Origin: a virus
Direction: 5' to 3' (one strand)
Virus record (IMG/VR): IMGVR_UViG_3300032893_000088
Span: 1-47,139 of that record
Length of the DNA stretch: 47,139 nt
The translations under genes were made by a program, and so were the position numbers. Under the pieces are notes generated by a model, which did not search any database, had not been told where the DNA came from, and saw only the letters and a program-made list of their open reading frames with translations. This document shows, in pieces, positions 213-13,616 of this stretch (position 1 is the first letter of the stretch; each line of letters begins with the position of its first letter).

Positions 213-2537
213 TTACTTTTTCGAGGGTGGCGCCGCGGGCTTATGCACGGGCGGTGTCTTCATATGCAGCGGTGGCATCGGAATATTGGTACCGGGGATC
301 GTCGCCGGAATGTGAGCCGCGAGGCCCGGGGGCATCGGCATCGCCGGCGGCAGCGTGGTGCCGGGCGGTGCGCCCGGGGGCGCGCCCGGAGGTGCGCCCG
401 GAGGCGCACCGGGCACCGGCGGATGCATGCCCGGGGGCGGCGTCGGTGGGTGCTCGATCTGTTCGGCGGCCATGACCGCTTCCACATCCTGCGGCGGGAG
501 CTGCCCCATGAGCTGGATCTGGACGCGCGTGGCCGGCGGAGGCGCGGGCGGAGGCGGCGGGATCGGCGGCTGACCGGCCGGGATGAAGTCGTCGAGATCG
601 AGCCGGTCGTCCATGCGGTGCAGCGTCTCGCGCAGCACATGGATGTACGATTGCGCCAGCTCGGGGTCGAGCAACTGCTCCATGCGGATCTGCTTGAGCG
701 AGTTCTCGAGGAGCGGAAGGATCTGCGCCCACGCCTGCTTGTCAGCGGCGAAGTTCGGCTTGCCGGTCGTGCCCGCGTTGATCGAAATCTCGGTCATCGT
801 CAGCACGTCCTCGACATCCATGCCGGGTGAGCCCGTCTGCGTGTTCGGTCCGAGCCAGAAGGCGTTCTGGCCGCACACGCGCTGCACCCACTGCACGGAG
901 CATTCCTGCGTTGAAACCTCGGCGGTGTACTGCGCCAGATCGGTGAGCATGTCCTCGAGCACGTCGCGGTCGGCGCCCGTGCGGGACATGAACCCCTGCT
1001 GCTGGATCTGCGCCTCGGTGGCCGTCTTGGGCTGCACGCTCGAGGCTGCGTTCTGCTGCAGGGCCTCCTGCACGCCGGAGAGGGCCTCCATGTCCGAGCG
1101 GATCGCCGCAGTGTCGTAGAGCTGCGCATTATACGTACCGACCGGCTTCGCGATGAAGGCGTTCTGTAGCGGCTGGTCCGCTACAGTGCGGACGGCGATC
1201 ATCTCTTGCTGATTCGCGTCGCTGATCTTCTTCGCATCCTCCGGGTCGATGGCCGCGGAGTTGAAGATGACGCCCGTGACGCTGCGCTCGCGCGTCAAGC
1301 GCTGGTTCGAGCGGCACGAGGCGTACTCGTCGGCGAGCTTGCGCAGCCGCCACGGGAGCGACTGACCGTGACGCTTGCCATCCACGGGGAAAAATGCGAG
1401 ATAGAAGAACGGGTAGAAGCGTGTCGATGCCTGCGGCGGCGAATAGGGCTGCACGGCCCATCGCTTCGTGCCGGCCACCCACGTCTTGACATCGAGATCG
1501 CGGCGATCCCACAGCTCGATGATCTTGGCGAACTCGGGGGCCTTGCCGCCGCCCGCGCCGTTGAAATCCGGCTGGTTCTTGGAGAACTGTGACTCGTCCA
1601 CTCTCTCACCGACCGTGGACTGCTCTGCGGCCCCGGAGGTCGGCGGATTGCGCTGGTAGTACGTCTCGATCTGCGCGAGGTCATCCTCATCGAGATCAGG
1701 GAAGCGCGTTGGAATCGTGTCCTTCGGGACGTAGATGGCGCAGGCTATCCAGTCCGCTTCCTTGTAGTCCGCGAGGTCGGCGATATTGAGCGCGACCTGC
1801 ACGTCCTCGGCGCGGCATGAATCGACCACGAGGCCGTGGCGCTGCTTCTTCGCGAGCGACGCCTGTGCGCCTTCGATCTTGTTGTGCAGCTCCATGAGCT
1901 GCACGTCGAGGTCTTCGGTGGATTCGCCTTCGGCGATCTCCTTCTTCGCGGCCGCGATGGCCGCGGCCTGATCCTGTAGCGTGGCGAGCGAGTGCTCGAG
2001 CTGCGGCGCCGGGACCTTCTGCGTCAGCATCGTGGCCTTGAGCCAGCCCGCGCCGACGGTGAGCGCCGAGCGCACGCACTTCTTGCCCGACTTCTTCAGA
2101 TTGCCATCGCGCCAGAGTTTGTCGATGACGATCTCTAGCGTCTCCGCGAACCGCGTAGCGTTTTGATTCGGCTGTTCGCCGACTTGCTCAGCGGGTCTAA
2201 CGCCTGGGTCGGGATTCTGTGCGTAGAGGAATGACACCAGTATGTCAACAAAGGACCCGATAAGGTTAGCGTCAGAAGCCCAATCAGGGTTAGCCACACC
2301 AGCCGCATACTTGCGATCCTTGTTGTACTGAATGCGTGCCAGCTTGTCGAATTCGCAGGCTGTCGCGTATTCCTTGGAGATTTTCTTGACGAGTTCCAGC
2401 TCGGCGTCGGGCACCTTGCCGTCGTTCATGTTGGAGGCGGCGTTCACCCCCGCGATGGCGGCTTCCCGCTCGGGAGATGCGCCGCTCGATTCGCCGGTCG
2501 ATGCGGCGGAGCCCAACAGGTCAGAAATGTCGTCCAC
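213..2537 (-). CDS. Portal protein
   Basis: This 774-residue protein is the probable head portal, the dodecameric ring through which DNA is packaged and ejected. It starts with GTG at 2537, whose G overlaps the TAG stop of the gene before (TAGTG). A helical N-terminus is followed by a wing/stem region of the kind seen in long podovirus portals, with coiled-coil segments near residues 185-235 and a helical Gln-rich barrel-like part near residues 490-560. The C-terminus (about residues 655-774) is unusually rich in Pro and Gly, with tandem GAPP units encoded by a 12-base repeat at about 367-414. The length suits large podovirus portals rather than siphovirus ones of 400-500 residues. Its position between the large terminase and the scaffold supports the call. 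Confidence 0.8.
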   Translation of the reverse strand: MDDISDLLGSAASTGESSGASPEREAAIAGVNAASNMNDGKVPDAELELVKKISKEYATACEFDKLARIQYNKDRKYAAGVANPDWASDANLIGSFVDILVSFLYAQNPDPGVRPAEQVGEQPNQNATRFAETLEIVIDKLWRDGNLKKSGKKCVRSALTVGAGWLKATMLTQKVPAPQLEHSLATLQDQAAAIAAAKKEIAEGESTEDLDVQLMELHNKIEGAQASLAKKQRHGLVVDSCRAEDVQVALNIADLADYKEADWIACAIYVPKDTIPTRFPDLDEDDLAQIETYYQRNPPTSGAAEQSTVGERVDESQFSKNQPDFNGAGGGKAPEFAKIIELWDRRDLDVKTWVAGTKRWAVQPYSPPQASTRFYPFFYLAFFPVDGKRHGQSLPWRLRKLADEYASCRSNQRLTRERSVTGVIFNSAAIDPEDAKKISDANQQEMIAVRTVADQPLQNAFIAKPVGTYNAQLYDTAAIRSDMEALSGVQEALQQNAASSVQPKTATEAQIQQQGFMSRTGADRDVLEDMLTDLAQYTAEVSTQECSVQWVQRVCGQNAFWLGPNTQTGSPGMDVEDVLTMTEISINAGTTGKPNFAADKQAWAQILPLLENSLKQIRMEQLLDPELAQSYIHVLRETLHRMDDRLDLDDFIPAGQPPIPPPPPAPPPATRVQIQLMGQLPPQDVEAVMAAEQIEHPPTPPPGMHPPVPGAPPGAPPGAPPGAPPGTTLPPAMPMPPGLAAHIPATIPGTNIPMPPLHMKTPPVHKPAAPPSKK
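367..414. repeat. 12-base tandem repeat in the portal C-terminus
   Basis: Four near-identical 12-base units (plus-strand reading about GGTGCGCCCGGG) encode four consecutive GAPP units at the proline-rich end of the portal protein. The copies differ at third codon positions, which suggests the peptide repeat is kept rather than freshly duplicated. Confidence 0.8.
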
Positions 2538-2818
2538 TAGAACCTCTTACCGAGCGCGCGGTTGCGCTGCCAGGCGTATTCCTTCTTGGCCTGCGGCAGC
2601 GGCTTCGGCTGCGGCGGGGATAGATGCGGGGGCGGCGCCGTCGAGGGCGTGCCGATGAGCGCGGGGCGCGAGGTCACGATGCGCTTCGGGTAGTGTGGGA
2701 CGTGCGGAGCGCCCGGAGGCGGCGTGCCCACTACGGGGGGAGGTCCGTGTGTGGTGACAGGGGCCGCCGCCTCCGGTGCTGGCACGACTTGCGGAGTTGC
2801 GGGCTTGAATGCGGTCAT
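2537..2818 (-). CDS. Proline-rich hypothetical protein
   Basis: This is a 93-residue protein of unknown function. It starts with ATG at 2818, overlapping the stop of the gene before by 4 bases (ATGA). The first 75 residues are mostly Pro, Ala, Thr and Val, and the last 18 are basic. There is no membrane segment or known motif. Its fixed place between the staple-like protein and the portal suggests a virion or assembly role, perhaps a flexible linker, but nothing in the sequence proves this. Confidence 0.7.
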   Translation of the reverse strand: MTAFKPATPQVVPAPEAAAPVTTHGPPPVVGTPPPGAPHVPHYPKRIVTSRPALIGTPSTAPPPHLSPPQPKPLPQAKKEYAWQRNRALGKRF

Positions 2819-3174
2819 TCGCCGCTCTCTGACGGCGCGTTGTCCACGGCCTGACTCACGGTATCGAGCGCGGATTCGCCCTTCTTTTTGCGAGCGTTCG
2901 CGGCCATCTTCTTGAGCTGCAGCTCGATGCGGCGTTCCTTCTTGCCGTTCTCGCTCTCCGTCTCGTTGACCGACATCACATGCCCGTGGCCGGTCACATC
3001 GAACACGTCGCCGACCTTCGGTGTGCCGATGTTCAGCTTGTCCGCGTCCTCGCCGTTCAGTGTGATGCGATGCTCGTAAGAGTACGGGTTCGGGACTTCC
3101 TTGCCGACGCTCGGGGCAGAGGCGACGGACTCCTTGACCGGAGCCCGCGCCATATCGAACAGCTTCTGCGCCAC
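2815..3174 (-). CDS. Capsid-staple-like virion protein
   Basis: This is a 119-residue protein with a GTG start at 3174. The middle (about residues 30-90) has the pattern I associate with the small capsid staple/accessory family of podoviruses: YSYEHRITLNGEDADKL, then PKVGDVFDVTGHG, then a V-S-V-N stretch, a short charged turn and ERRIELQLKKM. This predicts a small beta-barrel in which two strands bracket a VGD turn. The C-terminus is Lys-rich, then acidic. Such proteins sit on the capsid shell. The resemblance is from memory; structural comparison would decide. Gene order next to the portal agrees. Confidence 0.55.
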   Translation of the reverse strand: MAQKLFDMARAPVKESVASAPSVGKEVPNPYSYEHRITLNGEDADKLNIGTPKVGDVFDVTGHGHVMSVNETESENGKKERRIELQLKKMAANARKKKGESALDTVSQAVDNAPSESGE

Positions 3175-3178
3175 GGTC

Positions 3179-3289
3179 TTAGACCTTGGCTTTGACCGAG
3201 GCGATCTGCTTCGCGACGAAGGCGTACACGGCAGGGATCACGACGGCCGCGACGGCTCCGATTACGATGCCAGCAACGAGTGCGATCAT
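3179..3289 (-). CDS. Small single-span membrane protein (36 aa)
   Basis: This short gene has a strong ribosome site: AGGAGACC stands just before the ATG at 3289. The 36 residues are one hydrophobic helix (IALVAGIVIGAVAAVVIPAV) followed by a short basic tail rich in K. The stop (3181-3179) lies just ahead of the next gene's GTG start. Function unknown; a small virion-membrane or ejection helper is possible. Confidence 0.7.
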   Translation of the reverse strand: MIALVAGIVIGAVAAVVIPAVYAFVAKQIASVKAKV

Positions 3290-3339
3290 TGGGGTCTCCT
3301 GATTGTGAATCGACAGGTCCCGCGCAGCCTACATGAGAC

Positions 3340-4935
3340 TTAACGGTACCGCAACTTCGGCTTCTGATTGTCCTCGCTGTACTCCACCCACTCGGCCGTG
3401 AAGGGTCGAATCCCGGGCTTGCGCTCGGGCGGGGCCTGCGGGGCGTCGAGGATCTGGTCGATCACGCGGCCGAGGAGGCCGAGCACGTCCGCTTTGTCGT
3501 CATGCTTGCCGGCGGGCATCGCCTCAACCTGCGCGATGCCCTGCTCGGCCCAAATCTTGTCCTTGCCGCGGTTCGGGAAGTGAACGATGCCGGTGTTCGC
3601 GATGGCGATGAAGCCCTGCACCTTGGAAACTTTGTCCGCGTTGGAGGACTGGGGCCGCACGTCGAGGTAGATCCGCTTCTCTCGCATCGCCTTGTTCAAC
3701 GCCGGCCCCACAGAGTTGTGGATCACCCCCTTTTCATCGAACACGGTGCGCACGCCGTTACGCTGCGCCATTGCGAGCAGTGCATCTATACCCTTGTCCG
3801 GGGTGACTTGTCCAGACCACGTATCGAGCAGCCACGCCTCGCCCTGCGCGTCGATGCCGAACACGGCATGCTCGGTCCAGTCGGCGCTCGCCTTCTCGGT
3901 AACGGCGAAGTCGGTCATCAGCGCGACGCGGAGCTGCTTGCGCGGCGGGAAGTTCTTCGGGTCATCCCAGTGGATCTTCGAGCGGTCGAGGCTCGTGTTA
4001 CCCTGCGGGACGGGGCGCTGCTGATAGAGGCTCGACCATGTGCGCTGCGCCGCGCGCGACTCGCCGCGCTCGAACATCTGCCAGTGCTCGACCGGGAAGT
4101 ATTCAGTCCACAGGTAGTCGCCGATCTTGCGCCCGAGCGGATCGTCCGGATGCTCGGCCTTCGCCGGCACATTCAGCACTTCCCAGTAGAGCCCATCGCG
4201 GCAGAGCACCATGCCCGACTGGCCGTTGTAGTCCTCGGGGAGAATCGAGCCGGCGAGATCGTTCTCGTTCCAGCGCGTCATCACGAGGATGCCCCACGCG
4301 CCTGGGAGCACGCGGGTTAGCAGGTCATCCTGATACGCCTCCACGGTGCTCGCCTGAAACTGCGGCGAGTCCGCGTCCTGCCGGCCCTTCACCGGGTCGT
4401 CAATGATGAAGCCGGTGGCGCGGTTGCCGGTAATGCCGGCGAGGAGGCCCGCGGCGATGAGCTCAGACTCGTTGCTGAGCGCCCAGTCGCCCGCCGCGTC
4501 TCGAGTGAGACTCAGCGGATCATCCCACAGGTTCACGTACTCGGGCGAACGGCATACCTGCTGACAGCGCCGCGATTGGCGCTCGGCGAGCGGCGTCGCG
4601 TAGGAGGTGAGTATCAGGCGGCTCTTGGGCACTTTCGCCATGATCCAACTTGGGAGAACCACGTCGGTGTATGTGGACTTGGCGGCGCCCGGTGGGAACA
4701 TCAGCATCGCCCGGCCCATCGGGCGCGTGACCGTGCGCTGAAGCACGTCCAGCATCACCGCGATGTGGTGCGGCATGAAGAACCGCGCCGGCCCGAAAGC
4801 GTCCTCATCCAGTTCCTCGAACGGCGGATTCGGCGCGAGCGGGATCTGGATGCTAAGCGCGTAGCTGTGGAGGGATTGCTGCGCGCGTTTGCGGCGCAGC
4901 AGCTCGCGTTTTATCTGCGCCGGGGAGTCATTCAC
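3340..4935 (-). CDS. terL: Terminase large subunit (packaging ATPase-nuclease)
   Basis: This 531-residue motor cuts concatemeric DNA and pumps it into the procapsid through the portal. The N-terminal ATPase has a Walker A-like MFPPGAAKST (about residues 79-88) and Walker B GFIIDDP (about 175-181). The C-terminal RNase H-like nuclease begins with MTDFAVT (D342), with further acidic residues near 400 (VFDEKG) and in GKHDDKADVLG near 485. Length is normal. The ATG at 4935 overlaps the stop of the preceding 48-residue gene (ATGA). A 50-base gap follows before the next gene. The sequence alone does not tell whether packaging is headful or site-specific, although the circularly closing assembly would suit headful packaging. 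Confidence 0.93.
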   Translation of the reverse strand: MNDSPAQIKRELLRRKRAQQSLHSYALSIQIPLAPNPPFEELDEDAFGPARFFMPHHIAVMLDVLQRTVTRPMGRAMLMFPPGAAKSTYTDVVLPSWIMAKVPKSRLILTSYATPLAERQSRRCQQVCRSPEYVNLWDDPLSLTRDAAGDWALSNESELIAAGLLAGITGNRATGFIIDDPVKGRQDADSPQFQASTVEAYQDDLLTRVLPGAWGILVMTRWNENDLAGSILPEDYNGQSGMVLCRDGLYWEVLNVPAKAEHPDDPLGRKIGDYLWTEYFPVEHWQMFERGESRAAQRTWSSLYQQRPVPQGNTSLDRSKIHWDDPKNFPPRKQLRVALMTDFAVTEKASADWTEHAVFGIDAQGEAWLLDTWSGQVTPDKGIDALLAMAQRNGVRTVFDEKGVIHNSVGPALNKAMREKRIYLDVRPQSSNADKVSKVQGFIAIANTGIVHFPNRGKDKIWAEQGIAQVEAMPAGKHDDKADVLGLLGRVIDQILDAPQAPPERKPGIRPFTAEWVEYSEDNQKPKLRYR

Positions 4936-11360: not shown

Positions 11361-11652
11361 CGCTGAGATCGTTGATGTTGCACAGTGCGCCTTTTGGGAT
11401 GCTGTCGTGGACATGCTGCCCGAAGTAAAGACCGGCGACTTTCCGCCCGACGCGCAGTTTGCTTTCGATGAGGCATGCCGCAAGGCTGTGACACTATGGC
11501 GGGAGATCAACAAACCGGAGCCCGGCGCGCTGTTATCGCAAACCGTGGCACGCGCGCAGGACTTGCTTGAGCGCTGCCGCGACGGTGAGCCGGTAACGCA
11601 GCGGGATTTTGAGACGGTCATCGACTTCTGCCGCCGAGCGCTCAGGCAATGA
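11347..11652 (+). CDS. Conserved hypothetical phage protein (101 aa)
   Basis: ATG 11347. The 101-residue protein starts KPTDAEIVDVAQCAFWDAV, a pattern I recall in small phage proteins near replication genes. It is all-helical and mildly acidic. Its TGA (11650-11652) overlaps the ATG of the methyltransferase. Function unknown. Confidence 0.7.
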   Translation: MKPTDAEIVDVAQCAFWDAVVDMLPEVKTGDFPPDAQFAFDEACRKAVTLWREINKPEPGALLSQTVARAQDLLERCRDGEPVTQRDFETVIDFCRRALRQ

Positions 11653-12947
11653 CTGCCTACTACAACGAGAATGACCCCAAGGCCGCAGCGTGGCTGCGCG
11701 AACTAATCAAACACGGTCACATCGCACCGGGCGACGTGGACGAGAGGAGTATTGTTGATGTCAGACCAGGAGAGCTCAAAGGCTACACGCAAGCGCACTT
11801 CTTCGCGGGCATCGGCGGGTGGAGCTACGCGCTCCGCCTCGCGGGCTGGCCGGATGATCGACCAGTCTGGACCGGAAGCTGTCCTTGCCAGCCTTTCAGC
11901 GTGGCAGGCAAAGGCCGAGACGTGGACGACGAACGACACCTGTGGCCTGTATGGCGCGCCCTCATCCGCGAGTGCAGCCCGTCAATTATCTTTGGCGAGC
12001 AGGTTAGTTCGCCTGCTGCAATGTGCTGGCTCGCCCTTGTACAAGATGACTTGGAAGGTGCGGCTTACAGCGTCGCGTCGGCCGATCTGTGCGCTGCGGG
12101 CGTCGGTGCCCCGCACATCAGACAGCGGCTCTACTGGGTGGCCGTCTCCAGTAGTGAACGACTCGAAAGGGAGCGACTACACCTACGCGAACGGGAATCA
12201 CAACCGTCCGAGCCTGAAGTTGGGCGGAGCGGCGAAGCTGACAGCGGCGTGGCCCACGCCGACGACGCGCGATCACAAGGATGGAGCGAGCGACGGAACA
12301 GCGCCGATCAACGCTCTGCTTGGGCGCACAGCCTGGTTGGCTGCCGAGATGGGAAGTGGCGGCCAGTTGAACCCGTTGCACAGTCAATGGCTAATGGGAT
12401 ATCCCTGGCACTGGAGTGTCTGCGGAATTGCAGCCATGAGGAAAGGGAAGCGCTGACTGATGCCACAAAGGCCTTTGGATTTACCATCGAAACCGTGCGA
12501 GCGTTGCGGGAAGGAAATGCGCCGACGACGATTTGGCGCGCGTTTGGAGGACGCATCGGTCTTCCGCAAGCGACGCTACTGCTCGCTGTCGTGTGCGAAC
12601 AGGCGTGGGAACTGGGGCCGTTCTTCAACGGCCCGGAGGCGAGCGGCGAGGAAGAATGCGAAGCCCATATGCGAGCGTTGTGGGGCGAGCCCTCGGCGAT
12701 TGCATGTGCACCACAAAGACAGGAATTTTCAGAACAACACGTCAAGCAACTTGGAGACGCTGTGTCCGCGCTGTCACAAAAGAGCGCACGCATAGCTGAG
12801 TTGCTGGAGATGCTCGCGCCGTTCAATGGTTTTCCGCTCGCGCATAAGATTCCCGGCCGCGTGGGACTCCTGCGGGGCTACGGCAATGCAATCGTTCCGC
12901 AAGTCGCCGCGGCGTTCATCGAAGCCGCAACAGGAGTAGAGCCGTGA
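11649..12947 (+). CDS. dcm: DNA (cytosine-5) methyltransferase, with nested genes
   Basis: This 432-residue enzyme would transfer a methyl group from S-adenosylmethionine to cytosine in a short DNA site, probably to protect phage DNA from host restriction. Motif I is AHFFAGIGGW (residues 49-58), motif IV with the catalytic Cys is TGSCPCQPFS (75-84), and motif VI is FGEQV (115-119), a common phage variant of ENV. Motif VIII is RQRLYWVA (158-165) and motif X is LRGYGNAIVPQVAAAF (408-423). Residues 166-390 lie between VIII and X where the target-recognition domain should be, but their composition is odd. Codons 37-382 are overprinted by two genes in another frame (11758-12456 and 12460-12795). 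Start is ATG 11649, coupled to the previous stop. Motif X is preceded by FPLAHKIPGRVG, as normal. Activity is likely but not certain because the recognition domain is unusual. Confidence 0.85.
   Translation: MTAYYNENDPKAAAWLRELIKHGHIAPGDVDERSIVDVRPGELKGYTQAHFFAGIGGWSYALRLAGWPDDRPVWTGSCPCQPFSVAGKGRDVDDERHLWPVWRALIRECSPSIIFGEQVSSPAAMCWLALVQDDLEGAAYSVASADLCAAGVGAPHIRQRLYWVAVSSSERLERERLHLRERESQPSEPEVGRSGEADSGVAHADDARSQGWSERRNSADQRSAWAHSLVGCRDGKWRPVEPVAQSMANGISLALECLRNCSHEEREALTDATKAFGFTIETVRALREGNAPTTIWRAFGGRIGLPQATLLLAVVCEQAWELGPFFNGPEASGEEECEAHMRALWGEPSAIACAPQRQEFSEQHVKQLGDAVSALSQKSARIAELLEMLAPFNGFPLAHKIPGRVGLLRGYGNAIVPQVAAAFIEAATGVEP
11743..11760 (+). promoter_or_regulatory. Internal ribosome-binding site inside the methyltransferase gene
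   Basis: AGAGGAG at 11743-11749 with ATG at 11758-11760 is one of the best Shine-Dalgarno/start pairs in the window. It has no role in the enclosing methyltransferase frame, so it supports independent translation of the nested gene. Confidence 0.65.
11758..12456 (+). CDS. WPTP-type phage protein nested in the methyltransferase gene
   Basis: This 232-residue product lies wholly inside the methyltransferase gene, in a different frame. ATG 11758 is preceded by a near-ideal AGAGGAG (11743-11749) with 8 bases between. It carries signatures I recall in a family of phage proteins found beside C5 methyltransferases: SLASRLVRLLQ, LYKMTWKVRLTASRRPICAL (about residues 95-115), RASVPRTSDSGSTGWPSP, WPTPTTRDHKDGASDGT (about 165-182) and the closing GGQLNPLHSQWLMGYPWHW. 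No catalytic motif is visible and its function is unknown; a partner of the methyltransferase is one possibility. The alternative is that the resemblance reflects frame-shifted reading of a conserved methyltransferase. The separate ribosome site and the intact ending argue for translation. Confidence 0.6.
   Translation: MSDQESSKATRKRTSSRASAGGATRSASRAGRMIDQSGPEAVLASLSAWQAKAETWTTNDTCGLYGAPSSASAARQLSLASRLVRLLQCAGSPLYKMTWKVRLTASRRPICALRASVPRTSDSGSTGWPSPVVNDSKGSDYTYANGNHNRPSLKLGGAAKLTAAWPTPTTRDHKDGASDGTAPINALLGRTAWLAAEMGSGGQLNPLHSQWLMGYPWHWSVCGIAAMRKGKR
12460..12795 (+). CDS. HNH endonuclease nested in the methyltransferase gene
   Basis: This 111-residue protein is in the same frame as the preceding nested gene, separated from it by one codon (TGA-CTG-ATG) and preceded by GAGGAAAGGGAAG. 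It has an N-terminal Cys site (CERCGKEM ... RRYCSLSCANR) and a C-terminal HNH core: CERCGASPRRLHVHHKDRN (about residues 71-89), N near 97 and LCPRCHKRAHA at the end. The paired CxxC units would hold structural zinc while HH, N and H form the nicking site. HNH proteins with this GARLED...RRYC layout are familiar in phages next to methyltransferase genes. It may be a homing-type nuclease or act in packaging or restriction. The enclosing methyltransferase frame stays open through its whole length. Confidence 0.8.
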   Translation: MPQRPLDLPSKPCERCGKEMRRRRFGARLEDASVFRKRRYCSLSCANRRGNWGRSSTARRRAARKNAKPICERCGASPRRLHVHHKDRNFQNNTSSNLETLCPRCHKRAHA

Positions 12948-13069
12948 CGCTCGAAATCGGTATATTTCTGCTGCACCACCCGTTCCTAACGCTCCTCATA
13001 TGGTCGGCCTGCGCGGCCGTTGTGGGCTTCATGGTGGGCTCGATCATCTATTTCGGCATGGGGGATTGA
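12944..13069 (+). CDS. Small membrane protein (41 aa)
   Basis: The GTG at 12944 overlaps the methyltransferase stop (GTGA). Two hydrophobic segments cover nearly all 41 residues (about 4-20 and 22-38). Function unknown. Confidence 0.6.
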   Translation: MTLEIGIFLLHHPFLTLLIWSACAAVVGFMVGSIIYFGMGD

Positions 13070-13130
13070 CAGCCGGCCTCGCGCTGGCTCAACATCCCAC
13101 TCTCTCACCTCACCAACACGGAATCCATGA

Positions 13131-13616
13131 ATGAACCCGACAAAGATCGCAGCCGCGCTCCGGCTGCTGGCGGATGCAATCGAGGCCCCTGCCTCTGCGG
13201 AGAGTGCGCCTGCGGCCCCTGCAACTGCCCCGACTGCAAGCCCTGCCTCTACCGCAAAGCGCGGCCCGGGCCGGCCCCCGAAGACCGAGGCGAGCCAAGG
13301 CGGCGGGACGCCGGGAACGACGACCGCCCCTGCTACCACAACCGCAGCACCGGCTGCGAGCGAGCCGACGACGGCTACTGCGCCCGCTGCCACAACTCCC
13401 TCTACCCCTAGCGGCCTCACGCACGCAGTCGTCGCTCAGGACTTCAAGAACGCTGCTGCGAAGCATGGCCGCGATTTCGTAGTCGGGCTGATGAAAGCGC
13501 ACAACGCGGCGACGTTCGATAAGGTGCCGGTCGCTGCGCTCCCTGCGTTCCAAGCCGCGCTCAAGGCCGGCCCGCAGGCGCCTGCCGCTGGACCCGCGGA
13601 CGATCTTCTCGGATAA
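13131..13616 (+). CDS. AT-hook/low-complexity DNA-associated protein (161 aa)
   Basis: ATG 13131. The first 17 residues (NPTKIAAALRLLADAIEA) form an amphipathic helix. A Pro/Ala/Thr linker follows, interrupted by KRGPGRPPK (about residues 43-51), a textbook AT-hook core (GRP) that binds the minor groove. A folded C-terminal domain has RDFVVGLMKAHNAATF, and the protein ends DDLLG. I recall similar phage proteins beside recombination genes. A DNA-binding accessory of replication or recombination is inferred. The same DDLLG/GDLLG ending occurs in the ssDNA-binding protein at 16513, which may be a shared protein-contact tail. Confidence 0.7.
   Translation: MNPTKIAAALRLLADAIEAPASAESAPAAPATAPTASPASTAKRGPGRPPKTEASQGGGTPGTTTAPATTTAAPAASEPTTATAPAATTPSTPSGLTHAVVAQDFKNAAAKHGRDFVVGLMKAHNAATFDKVPVAALPAFQAALKAGPQAPAAGPADDLLG

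What the first reader, a model, noticed from the sequence alone, without database searches (positions are those of the whole stretch)
12460..12795. HNH endonuclease coded inside the methyltransferase frame without breaking it
The HNH protein has an unmistakable zinc/HNH core (CERCGASPRRLHVHHKDRN ... LCPRCHKRAHA). Yet the methyltransferase frame stays open across all 336 bases and reaches its own motif X beyond. An inserted gene would normally break the enclosing frame. Its shadow therefore acts as about 112 residues of linker or target-recognition sequence in the enzyme. The HNH start is joined to the previous nested gene (TGA-CTG-ATG), so the two look like a nested operon.
Basis: partly seen in the sequence, partly recalled or inferred. 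Interest (0 to 1): 0.75.

Follow-up and report, generated by a model that had tools for sequence, protein, structure and literature searches.

The report
Mobile nuclease gene hidden inside methyltransferase
A small DNA-cutting enzyme gene that appears to copy itself between phages sits inside a phage DNA-methylating enzyme gene in a shifted reading frame, and nearly 80 related cases show that the host gene's own frame is always kept free of stop signals there, so the parasite leaves its host gene readable.

Summary
HNH (12460-12795) lies in the +1 frame of a C5-cytosine methyltransferase (11649-12947). The MTase frame is open across it and reaches motif X.

It is not chance. A homology search gave 77 further loci with the same HNH family nested in C5-MTases, in the same relative phase and at at least four positions in the MTases. 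In 43 non-redundant cases the MTase frame holds 0 stops; about 188 are expected under synonymous reshuffling. HNH homologs outside MTases hold the expected number (96 vs 103).

Most likely mechanism: a homing-type HNH element invades C5-MTase genes and persists because its shadow frame is a stop-free, otherwise unconstrained linker. Evidence: inserted and uninserted MTases intermingle on the tree; L116/L117 share a 588-nt identical cassette in divergent MTases; substitutions concentrate at HNH third positions. Homing itself is inferred.

The kind is already known: Arsenault, Gosselin and Gogarten 2025 (ShiLan domain, PMC11855218). The variant here is new to the papers I could search: C5- instead of N6/N4-MTase, +1 instead of +2 frame, another HNH subfamily, an SD-like start, and a third overlapping gene (Mte8-like, 11752-12456).

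The parts
11649..12947 (+). C5-cytosine DNA methyltransferase (phrog_363, PF00145), 432 aa, all core motifs and motif X present
11752..12456 (+). Mte8-like overlapping gene (phrog_1008) in the +1 frame of the MTase; true start uncertain (TTG as listed)
   Evidence: +1 frame stop-depleted in 55 uninserted relatives (2 vs 162 expected) and in the window (P0=0.003)
12372..12830 (+). Block present in the MTase reading but absent from uninserted relatives (about 153 codons): Mte8 3' end copy 1 + HNH gene + short tail
   Evidence: alignment; coordinates
12364..12453 (+). C-terminal end of the Mte8-like protein, copy in use (QLNPLHSQWLMGYPWHWSVCGIAAMRKGKR)
12440..12449 (+). Shine-Dalgarno-like GGAAAGGGAA before the HNH start
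   Evidence: sequence; SD-like motifs before HNH starts in many homologs
12454..12462 (+). TGA-CTG-ATG stop/start junction of Mte8-like and HNH ORFs
12460..12795 (+). HNH endonuclease, 111 aa: N-terminal Cys4 zinc site (C13, C16, C41, C45) plus Cys4-type HNH (C71, C74, H84, H85, N97, C102, C105, H106, H110)
   Evidence: 14 invariant residues all kept in the window; model pLDDT 86
12850..12903 (+). Remnant second copy of the Mte8 C-terminus in the +1 frame (FPAAWDSCGATAMQSFRK), overlapping the MTase motif X segment
   Evidence: compare intact C-termini of uninserted relatives
12831..12902 (+). Re-joined MTase segment FPLAHKIPGRVGLLRGYGNAIVPQ with motif X

Best explanation
The HNH gene is a homing-type mobile gene that has invaded a phage C5-methyltransferase gene just before motif X. 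It is read from its own start in the +1 frame, probably by ribosomes finishing the upstream Mte8-like ORF. The host MTase is read straight through the element in the other frame, so the element adds a roughly 153-residue filler linker and does not destroy the enzyme. Persistence therefore needs two things: HNH purifying selection in one frame, and absence of stop codons in the other. Shown by computation: the arrangement, its recurrence, stop exclusion, HNH-frame constraint, sporadic distribution and transfer between divergent MTases. Inferred: that the HNH cuts uninserted MTase alleles, that the MTase with the linker is active, and that translation is coupled.
For: 77 further nested loci, all in C5-MTases with motif X downstream and all in the same phase. 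43 representatives: 0 stops vs 187.7 expected in the MTase frame, 169 vs 152 in the third frame; 13 non-nested homologs 96 vs 103. No closed-frame HNH between MTase core and motif X among 90 non-enclosed loci checked. Tree of MTase cores: 26 inserted and 40 uninserted rows need 18 changes, shuffled mean 20.7, so presence is sporadic; L161 sits among near-identical uninserted MTases. L116/L117: 588 nt 100% identical around HNH, dropping to 40-80% on both sides, the right drop inside the gene. HNH third positions carry 66% of differences at 85-95% identity; aa identity 0.91 HNH vs 0.77 shadow. Start signals. No Rfam intron.
Against: No cleavage, homing or MTase activity was shown. Higher HNH conservation is partly expected of any doubly coding stretch. 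The AlphaFold model gives the insert low confidence (pLDDT mostly 25-57), so it cannot show that the MTase folds around it. The sample was seeded with five nested HNHs and ranked by similarity, so prevalence is not estimated.
Confidence: 0.8

Rival explanations
1. Compact restriction-modification or exclusion pair: the HNH is a nuclease whose sites the enclosing MTase protects, the two genes being fused by overlap.
For: HNH always found with C5-MTases when nested; best structural neighbours of the HNH model are weak hits to restriction/defence HNH enzymes such as McrA and Cap5; weak PADLOC ZorE2 similarity.
Against: 55 uninserted MTases of the same family carry no nested HNH and the label is scattered on the MTase tree; the same HNH cassette occurs in divergent MTases with different variable regions. 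Foldseek E-values are all above 0.04.
Confidence: 0.08
2. Accidental open frame: the MTase is dead or ends early and the 432-codon frame is chance.
For: The window case alone has P of about 0.0065, not overwhelming; GC-rich shadows are often open.
Against: 43 non-redundant cases without a single stop, including AT-rich ones (Staphylococcus phage CUB-EPI_14, GC 0.35: 0 vs 6.4-15.8 expected), motif X conserved after every insert; non-nested homologs closed.
Confidence: 0.03
3. The shadow peptide has become a functional domain of the MTase (target recognition, dimerisation or regulation).
For: It is retained as 150 residues and predicted partly helical.
Against: Absent from most relatives; HNH-synonymous changes show no avoidance of radical shadow changes when transitions and transversions are matched (47 sites, P=0.33); shadow identity falls much faster than HNH identity.
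Confidence: 0.06
4. A self-splicing intron or intein-like element removes the block from the MTase.
For: Insertion next to a conserved motif is typical of such elements.
Against: No Rfam match at 11500-13200 even at E up to 1; no intein Pfam hit; HNH ORF fills most of the block; an intron would have no need of an open host frame.
Confidence: 0.03

Closest known systems
[quoted passage not shown] earlier PMC9957025)
   Same: HNH gene hidden in another frame of a phage methylase gene, methylase frame open, no intron or intein, disjunct distribution suggesting homing
   Different: ShiLan gp65 matches N6_N4_Mtase (PF01555), HNH in the +2 frame, other HNH subfamily (our profile gives only E=5.5e-4), no detectable RBS reported; here C5-MTase, +1 frame, N-terminal Cys4 + PF01844 HNH, SD-like sequence and stop/start junction, and an additional overlapping gene
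mORF / homing endonuclease insertions with C-terminal duplication in fungal mitochondrial genes (Allomyces atp6; Glomus atp6, atp9, cox2, nad3; PMC3630166)
   Same: Endonuclease gene inserted near the 3' end of a gene and carrying a replacement of the host C-terminus; here seen for Mte8, and for the MTase itself in L192
   Different: There the host gene simply ends before or is fused in phase with the endonuclease; here a second host gene is read through the endonuclease in another frame
Komagataeibacter phages phiKX1/phiKX2 and Staphylococcus phage CUB-EPI_14 MTase loci
   Same: Same HNH family nested in +1 frame of an open C5-MTase frame
   Different: Not recognised in the records; phiKX1/phiKX2 carry the Mte8 overlap, in CUB-EPI_14 the MTase is classical without Mte8 and the HNH lies before motif IX

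Membership tests
Hidden out-of-frame HNH insertion in a phage methylase (ShiLan kind) | HNH ORF out of frame inside a methylase gene | tested here: met
Hidden out-of-frame HNH insertion in a phage methylase (ShiLan kind) | methylase frame without stops across the insert | tested here: met
Hidden out-of-frame HNH insertion in a phage methylase (ShiLan kind) | sporadic presence among related methylases | tested here: met
Hidden out-of-frame HNH insertion in a phage methylase (ShiLan kind) | same methylase family, frame and HNH subfamily as ShiLan gp65 | tested here: not met
   PF01555 and +2 frame in ShiLan vs PF00145 and +1 here; marginal HNH profile match. So a separate class of the same kind, not a ShiLan domain
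Hidden out-of-frame HNH insertion in a phage methylase (ShiLan kind) | homing activity | not testable with these tools
   needs cleavage and co-infection assays
HNH endonuclease PF01844 | above gathering score, HNH and zinc residues kept | tested here: met
   31.7 bits vs cutoff 21.4; 14 invariant residues
C5-cytosine DNA methyltransferase PF00145 / phrog_363 | motifs I, IV (PCQ), VI, VIII, X in order | tested here: met
C5-cytosine DNA methyltransferase PF00145 / phrog_363 | catalytic activity with the insert | not testable with these tools
   needs expression; model of insert is low confidence
Group I or II intron with endonuclease ORF | ribozyme covariance match | tested here: not met
   no Rfam match up to E=1 at 11500-13200
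Intein | splicing domain in the host frame | tested here: not met
   no intein family in Pfam scan of the 432-aa protein
Type II restriction-modification pair | nuclease stays paired with its MTase | tested here: not met
   55 uninserted MTases; scattered on tree
Type II restriction-modification pair | nuclease and MTase share a target site | not testable with these tools
   needs biochemistry

The most novel reading that the evidence does not exclude
A widespread, specialised family of self-sparing homing elements has adapted to C5-methyltransferases. It always reads the host in the same shifted phase and keeps its own shadow frame stop-free. In MTases already overprinted by Mte8 it spares two overlapping host genes at once, by supplying Mte8 with a new end and stop and leaving the MTase frame open.
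Probability: 0.6. Interest if true: 0.7.

Novelty: new variant of a known kind. Interest (0 to 1): 0.6.

Why it matters
Mobile genes inside coding genes usually rely on RNA or protein splicing. This family points to a third way, dual coding. The published precedent rests mainly on two methylase inserts in mycobacteriophages (with similar sequences noted in other phages and prokaryotes) and left translation of the hidden nuclease open. Here dozens of loci, Gram-positive and Gram-negative, give a strong statistical test, natural controls outside MTases, start signals before the HNH and cultured representatives on which homing and MTase activity can be tested. Gene finders miss these genes, as in phiKX1, where the 548-aa MTase ORF and the nested HNH are both unannotated.

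Tried and rejected
Intron: Rfam search negative. Intein: no family. TRD role of the shadow: no residue-level constraint beyond stop exclusion; a first test that looked significant (P about 0) vanished after matching transitions and transversions. R-M pair: contradicted by sporadic presence. AlphaFold of the MTase with insert: insert unresolved, so no structural claim. HNH fold search: only weak hits, no family assignment. Plasmids: no match. First single-sequence HNH search found only homologs with no MTase match by later tests, apart from L082 and L084, which proved nested. Vibrio phage nt-1 and 1.253.O HNH homologs show no MTase in their annotated surroundings. Literature searches for C5-MTase or Mte8 versions found none in the held library.

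Full report
OBSERVATION. The window is an IMG/VR virus record. At 11649-12947 it codes a 432-aa C5-cytosine methyltransferase (PF00145 E=1.3e-14; phrog_363 E=7.6e-77). In its +1 frame lie two ORFs joined as TGA-CTG-ATG: 11752-12456 (phrog_1008, called Mte8-like in some records) and 12460-12795, a 111-aa HNH protein (PF01844, 31.7 bits, cutoff 21.4). The MTase frame has no stop across the HNH and continues to motif X (GNAIVPQ, 12882).

RELATIVES WITHOUT THE INSERT. Related MTases were fetched from viral contigs. In those without an insert the protein runs WRPVE-PGTFPLAHG...RVGRLRGYGNAI directly; in the window about 153 codons (12372-12830) lie between. In the same relatives the +1 frame is itself a real overlapping gene: in 55 uninserted MTases only 2 stops occur against 162 expected under synonymous permutation of MTase codons, while the other frame shows 691 against 621. 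So the HNH entered a place where two genes already overlapped. The window keeps the end of Mte8 before the HNH (12364-12453) and a second, remnant copy of that end after it (12850-12903, +1 frame), on top of the MTase motif X segment. In several inserted/uninserted comparisons 20-46 nt of the uninserted gene match on both sides of the cassette.

RELATIVES WITH THE INSERT. L002 and L049 showed HNH ORFs in the same position and phase. A tblastn search of phage records gave Komagataeibacter phages phiKX1/phiKX2 and, strikingly, AT-rich Staphylococcus phage CUB-EPI_14, whose classical C5-MTase has no Mte8 yet contains the HNH in the +1 frame with its own frame open. A profile search (A1) of viral and genome contigs yielded about 90 homologs that were carried into the frame test. 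77 lie inside an open frame one base before the HNH codons, and all 77 enclosing ORFs end in a C5-MTase motif X. At least four positions occur: after the DGKWRP block (32 loci), after LNPxWVExLMG in the MTase frame (17), before motif IX (5), before FMMGLPDG (2); 21 were not assigned by the simple rule. Some of the 77 are copies of one another (for example L151-L153, L165/L166; L202 equals L049 and L161 lies on the contig of L002), which is why the statistics use 43 representatives.

THE FRAME TEST. Permuting synonymous codons within each HNH gene, 43 representatives (below 70% identity) are expected to show 187.7 stops in the MTase frame and show 0; in the third frame 169 are seen and 152 expected; in 13 homologs not enclosed 96 are seen and 103 expected. 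Because 'enclosed' was defined by openness, the reverse was also checked: 90 non-enclosed loci were searched with MTase sequences. Only L192 (Spirosoma) has one, and there the MTase already carries motif X before the HNH, with a remnant of the old end after it; its frame has 8 stops. L114 (64% identical to the window's HNH) follows what reads like a Dam-type methylase (my reading of the translation) and has 8 stops. Thus the frame is open where the MTase needs it and closed where it does not.

WHICH FRAME IS CONSTRAINED. For pairs at 85-95% nucleotide identity, 66% of differences fall on HNH third positions; amino-acid identity is 0.91 for HNH and 0.77 for the shadow; window against L112: 21/18/55 differences, 75% vs 46% identity. 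HNH-synonymous changes are no milder in the MTase reading than expected once transitions and transversions are matched (P=0.33, 47 sites, limited power). The shadow therefore looks like filler kept free of stops. The AlphaFold model of the window MTase is confident for the core and poor for the insert, so folding is not settled. The HNH model is good (pLDDT 86), with N-terminal and HNH Cys4 sites invariant in 44 sequences.

MOBILITY. On a tree of MTase cores, 26 inserted and 40 uninserted rows need 18 changes of state (shuffled mean 20.7; 63 of 500 shuffles as low), so presence is close to random; L161 (same contig as L002) lies among almost identical uninserted MTases. L116 and L117 share 588 identical nucleotides centred on the HNH, with identity falling to 40-80% on both sides, on the right within the gene; L155/L157, L142/L146 and L130/L137 show weaker versions. 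This is the pattern left by transfer of a cassette between divergent host genes.

EXPRESSION. Many HNH starts abut or overlap the stop of the Mte8-like ORF and are preceded by purine-rich SD-like sequences, such as AGGAAGAAATAAATG types and AGGAGGAGATTTTAATG in CUB-EPI_14; in the window GGAAAGGGAA lies 11-20 nt before the ATG. In a few loci (L125, L149, L167, L194) Mte8 and HNH are one ORF. Coupled translation is inferred, not shown.

PRIOR WORK. The kind has been described: the ShiLan domain (PMC11855218), an out-of-frame HNH in mycobacteriophage methylases, interpreted as an actively homing insertion. I fetched ShiLan gp65: it is an N6_N4-type MTase, the HNH is in the +2 frame, and our family profile matches it only marginally. 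The present family is thus a separate class of the same kind. C-terminal duplication by endonuclease genes is known from fungal mitochondria (PMC3630166). Papers on the C5-MTase/Mte8 version were not found in the held library, which lacks most subscription journals.

VERDICT. Observation confirmed; interpretation partly supported; a new variant of a known kind, with much stronger evidence for frame maintenance than a single locus can give. Steps shown: arrangement, recurrence, stop exclusion, HNH-frame constraint, sporadic and transferred distribution. Steps inferred: cleavage of empty alleles, MTase activity with the linker, coupled translation.

Noticed in passing
window 11752-12456 and loci L003-L081: The Mte8-like gene overlapping phrog_363 MTases in +1 is a genuine long overlap (2 stops vs 162 expected in 55 loci). 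Its C-terminal LNPxxSxWLMGxP resembles LNPxWVExLMGxP found in the MTase frame of other C5-MTases, as if a recognition-type domain had been moved to another frame.
   Followed up: partly
L109 (LC644975) 1863-3519 and L253 (LC644976): Komagataeibacter phages phiKX1 and phiKX2: the 548-aa MTase ORF and the nested HNH are not annotated; only fragments in several frames are called.
   Followed up: yes
L192 about 2400-3700: Spirosoma: HNH of the same family lies after a complete C5-MTase, followed by a remnant of an older MTase 3' end; looks like C-terminal replacement by the element.
   Followed up: partly
L114 about 2600-3340: HNH 64% identical to the window's directly follows what looks like a Dam-type methylase ORF in a viral contig, not nested.
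   Followed up: partly
L125, L149, L167, L194: Mte8-like and HNH reading frames are continuous without a stop, so they may be made as one fused protein.
   Followed up: no
window 13127-13411 vs 13131-13616: Cys-rich ORF (CxxCxC pattern) fully overlapping a low-complexity Ala/Pro/Thr-rich ORF in another frame; probably a shadow.
   Followed up: no
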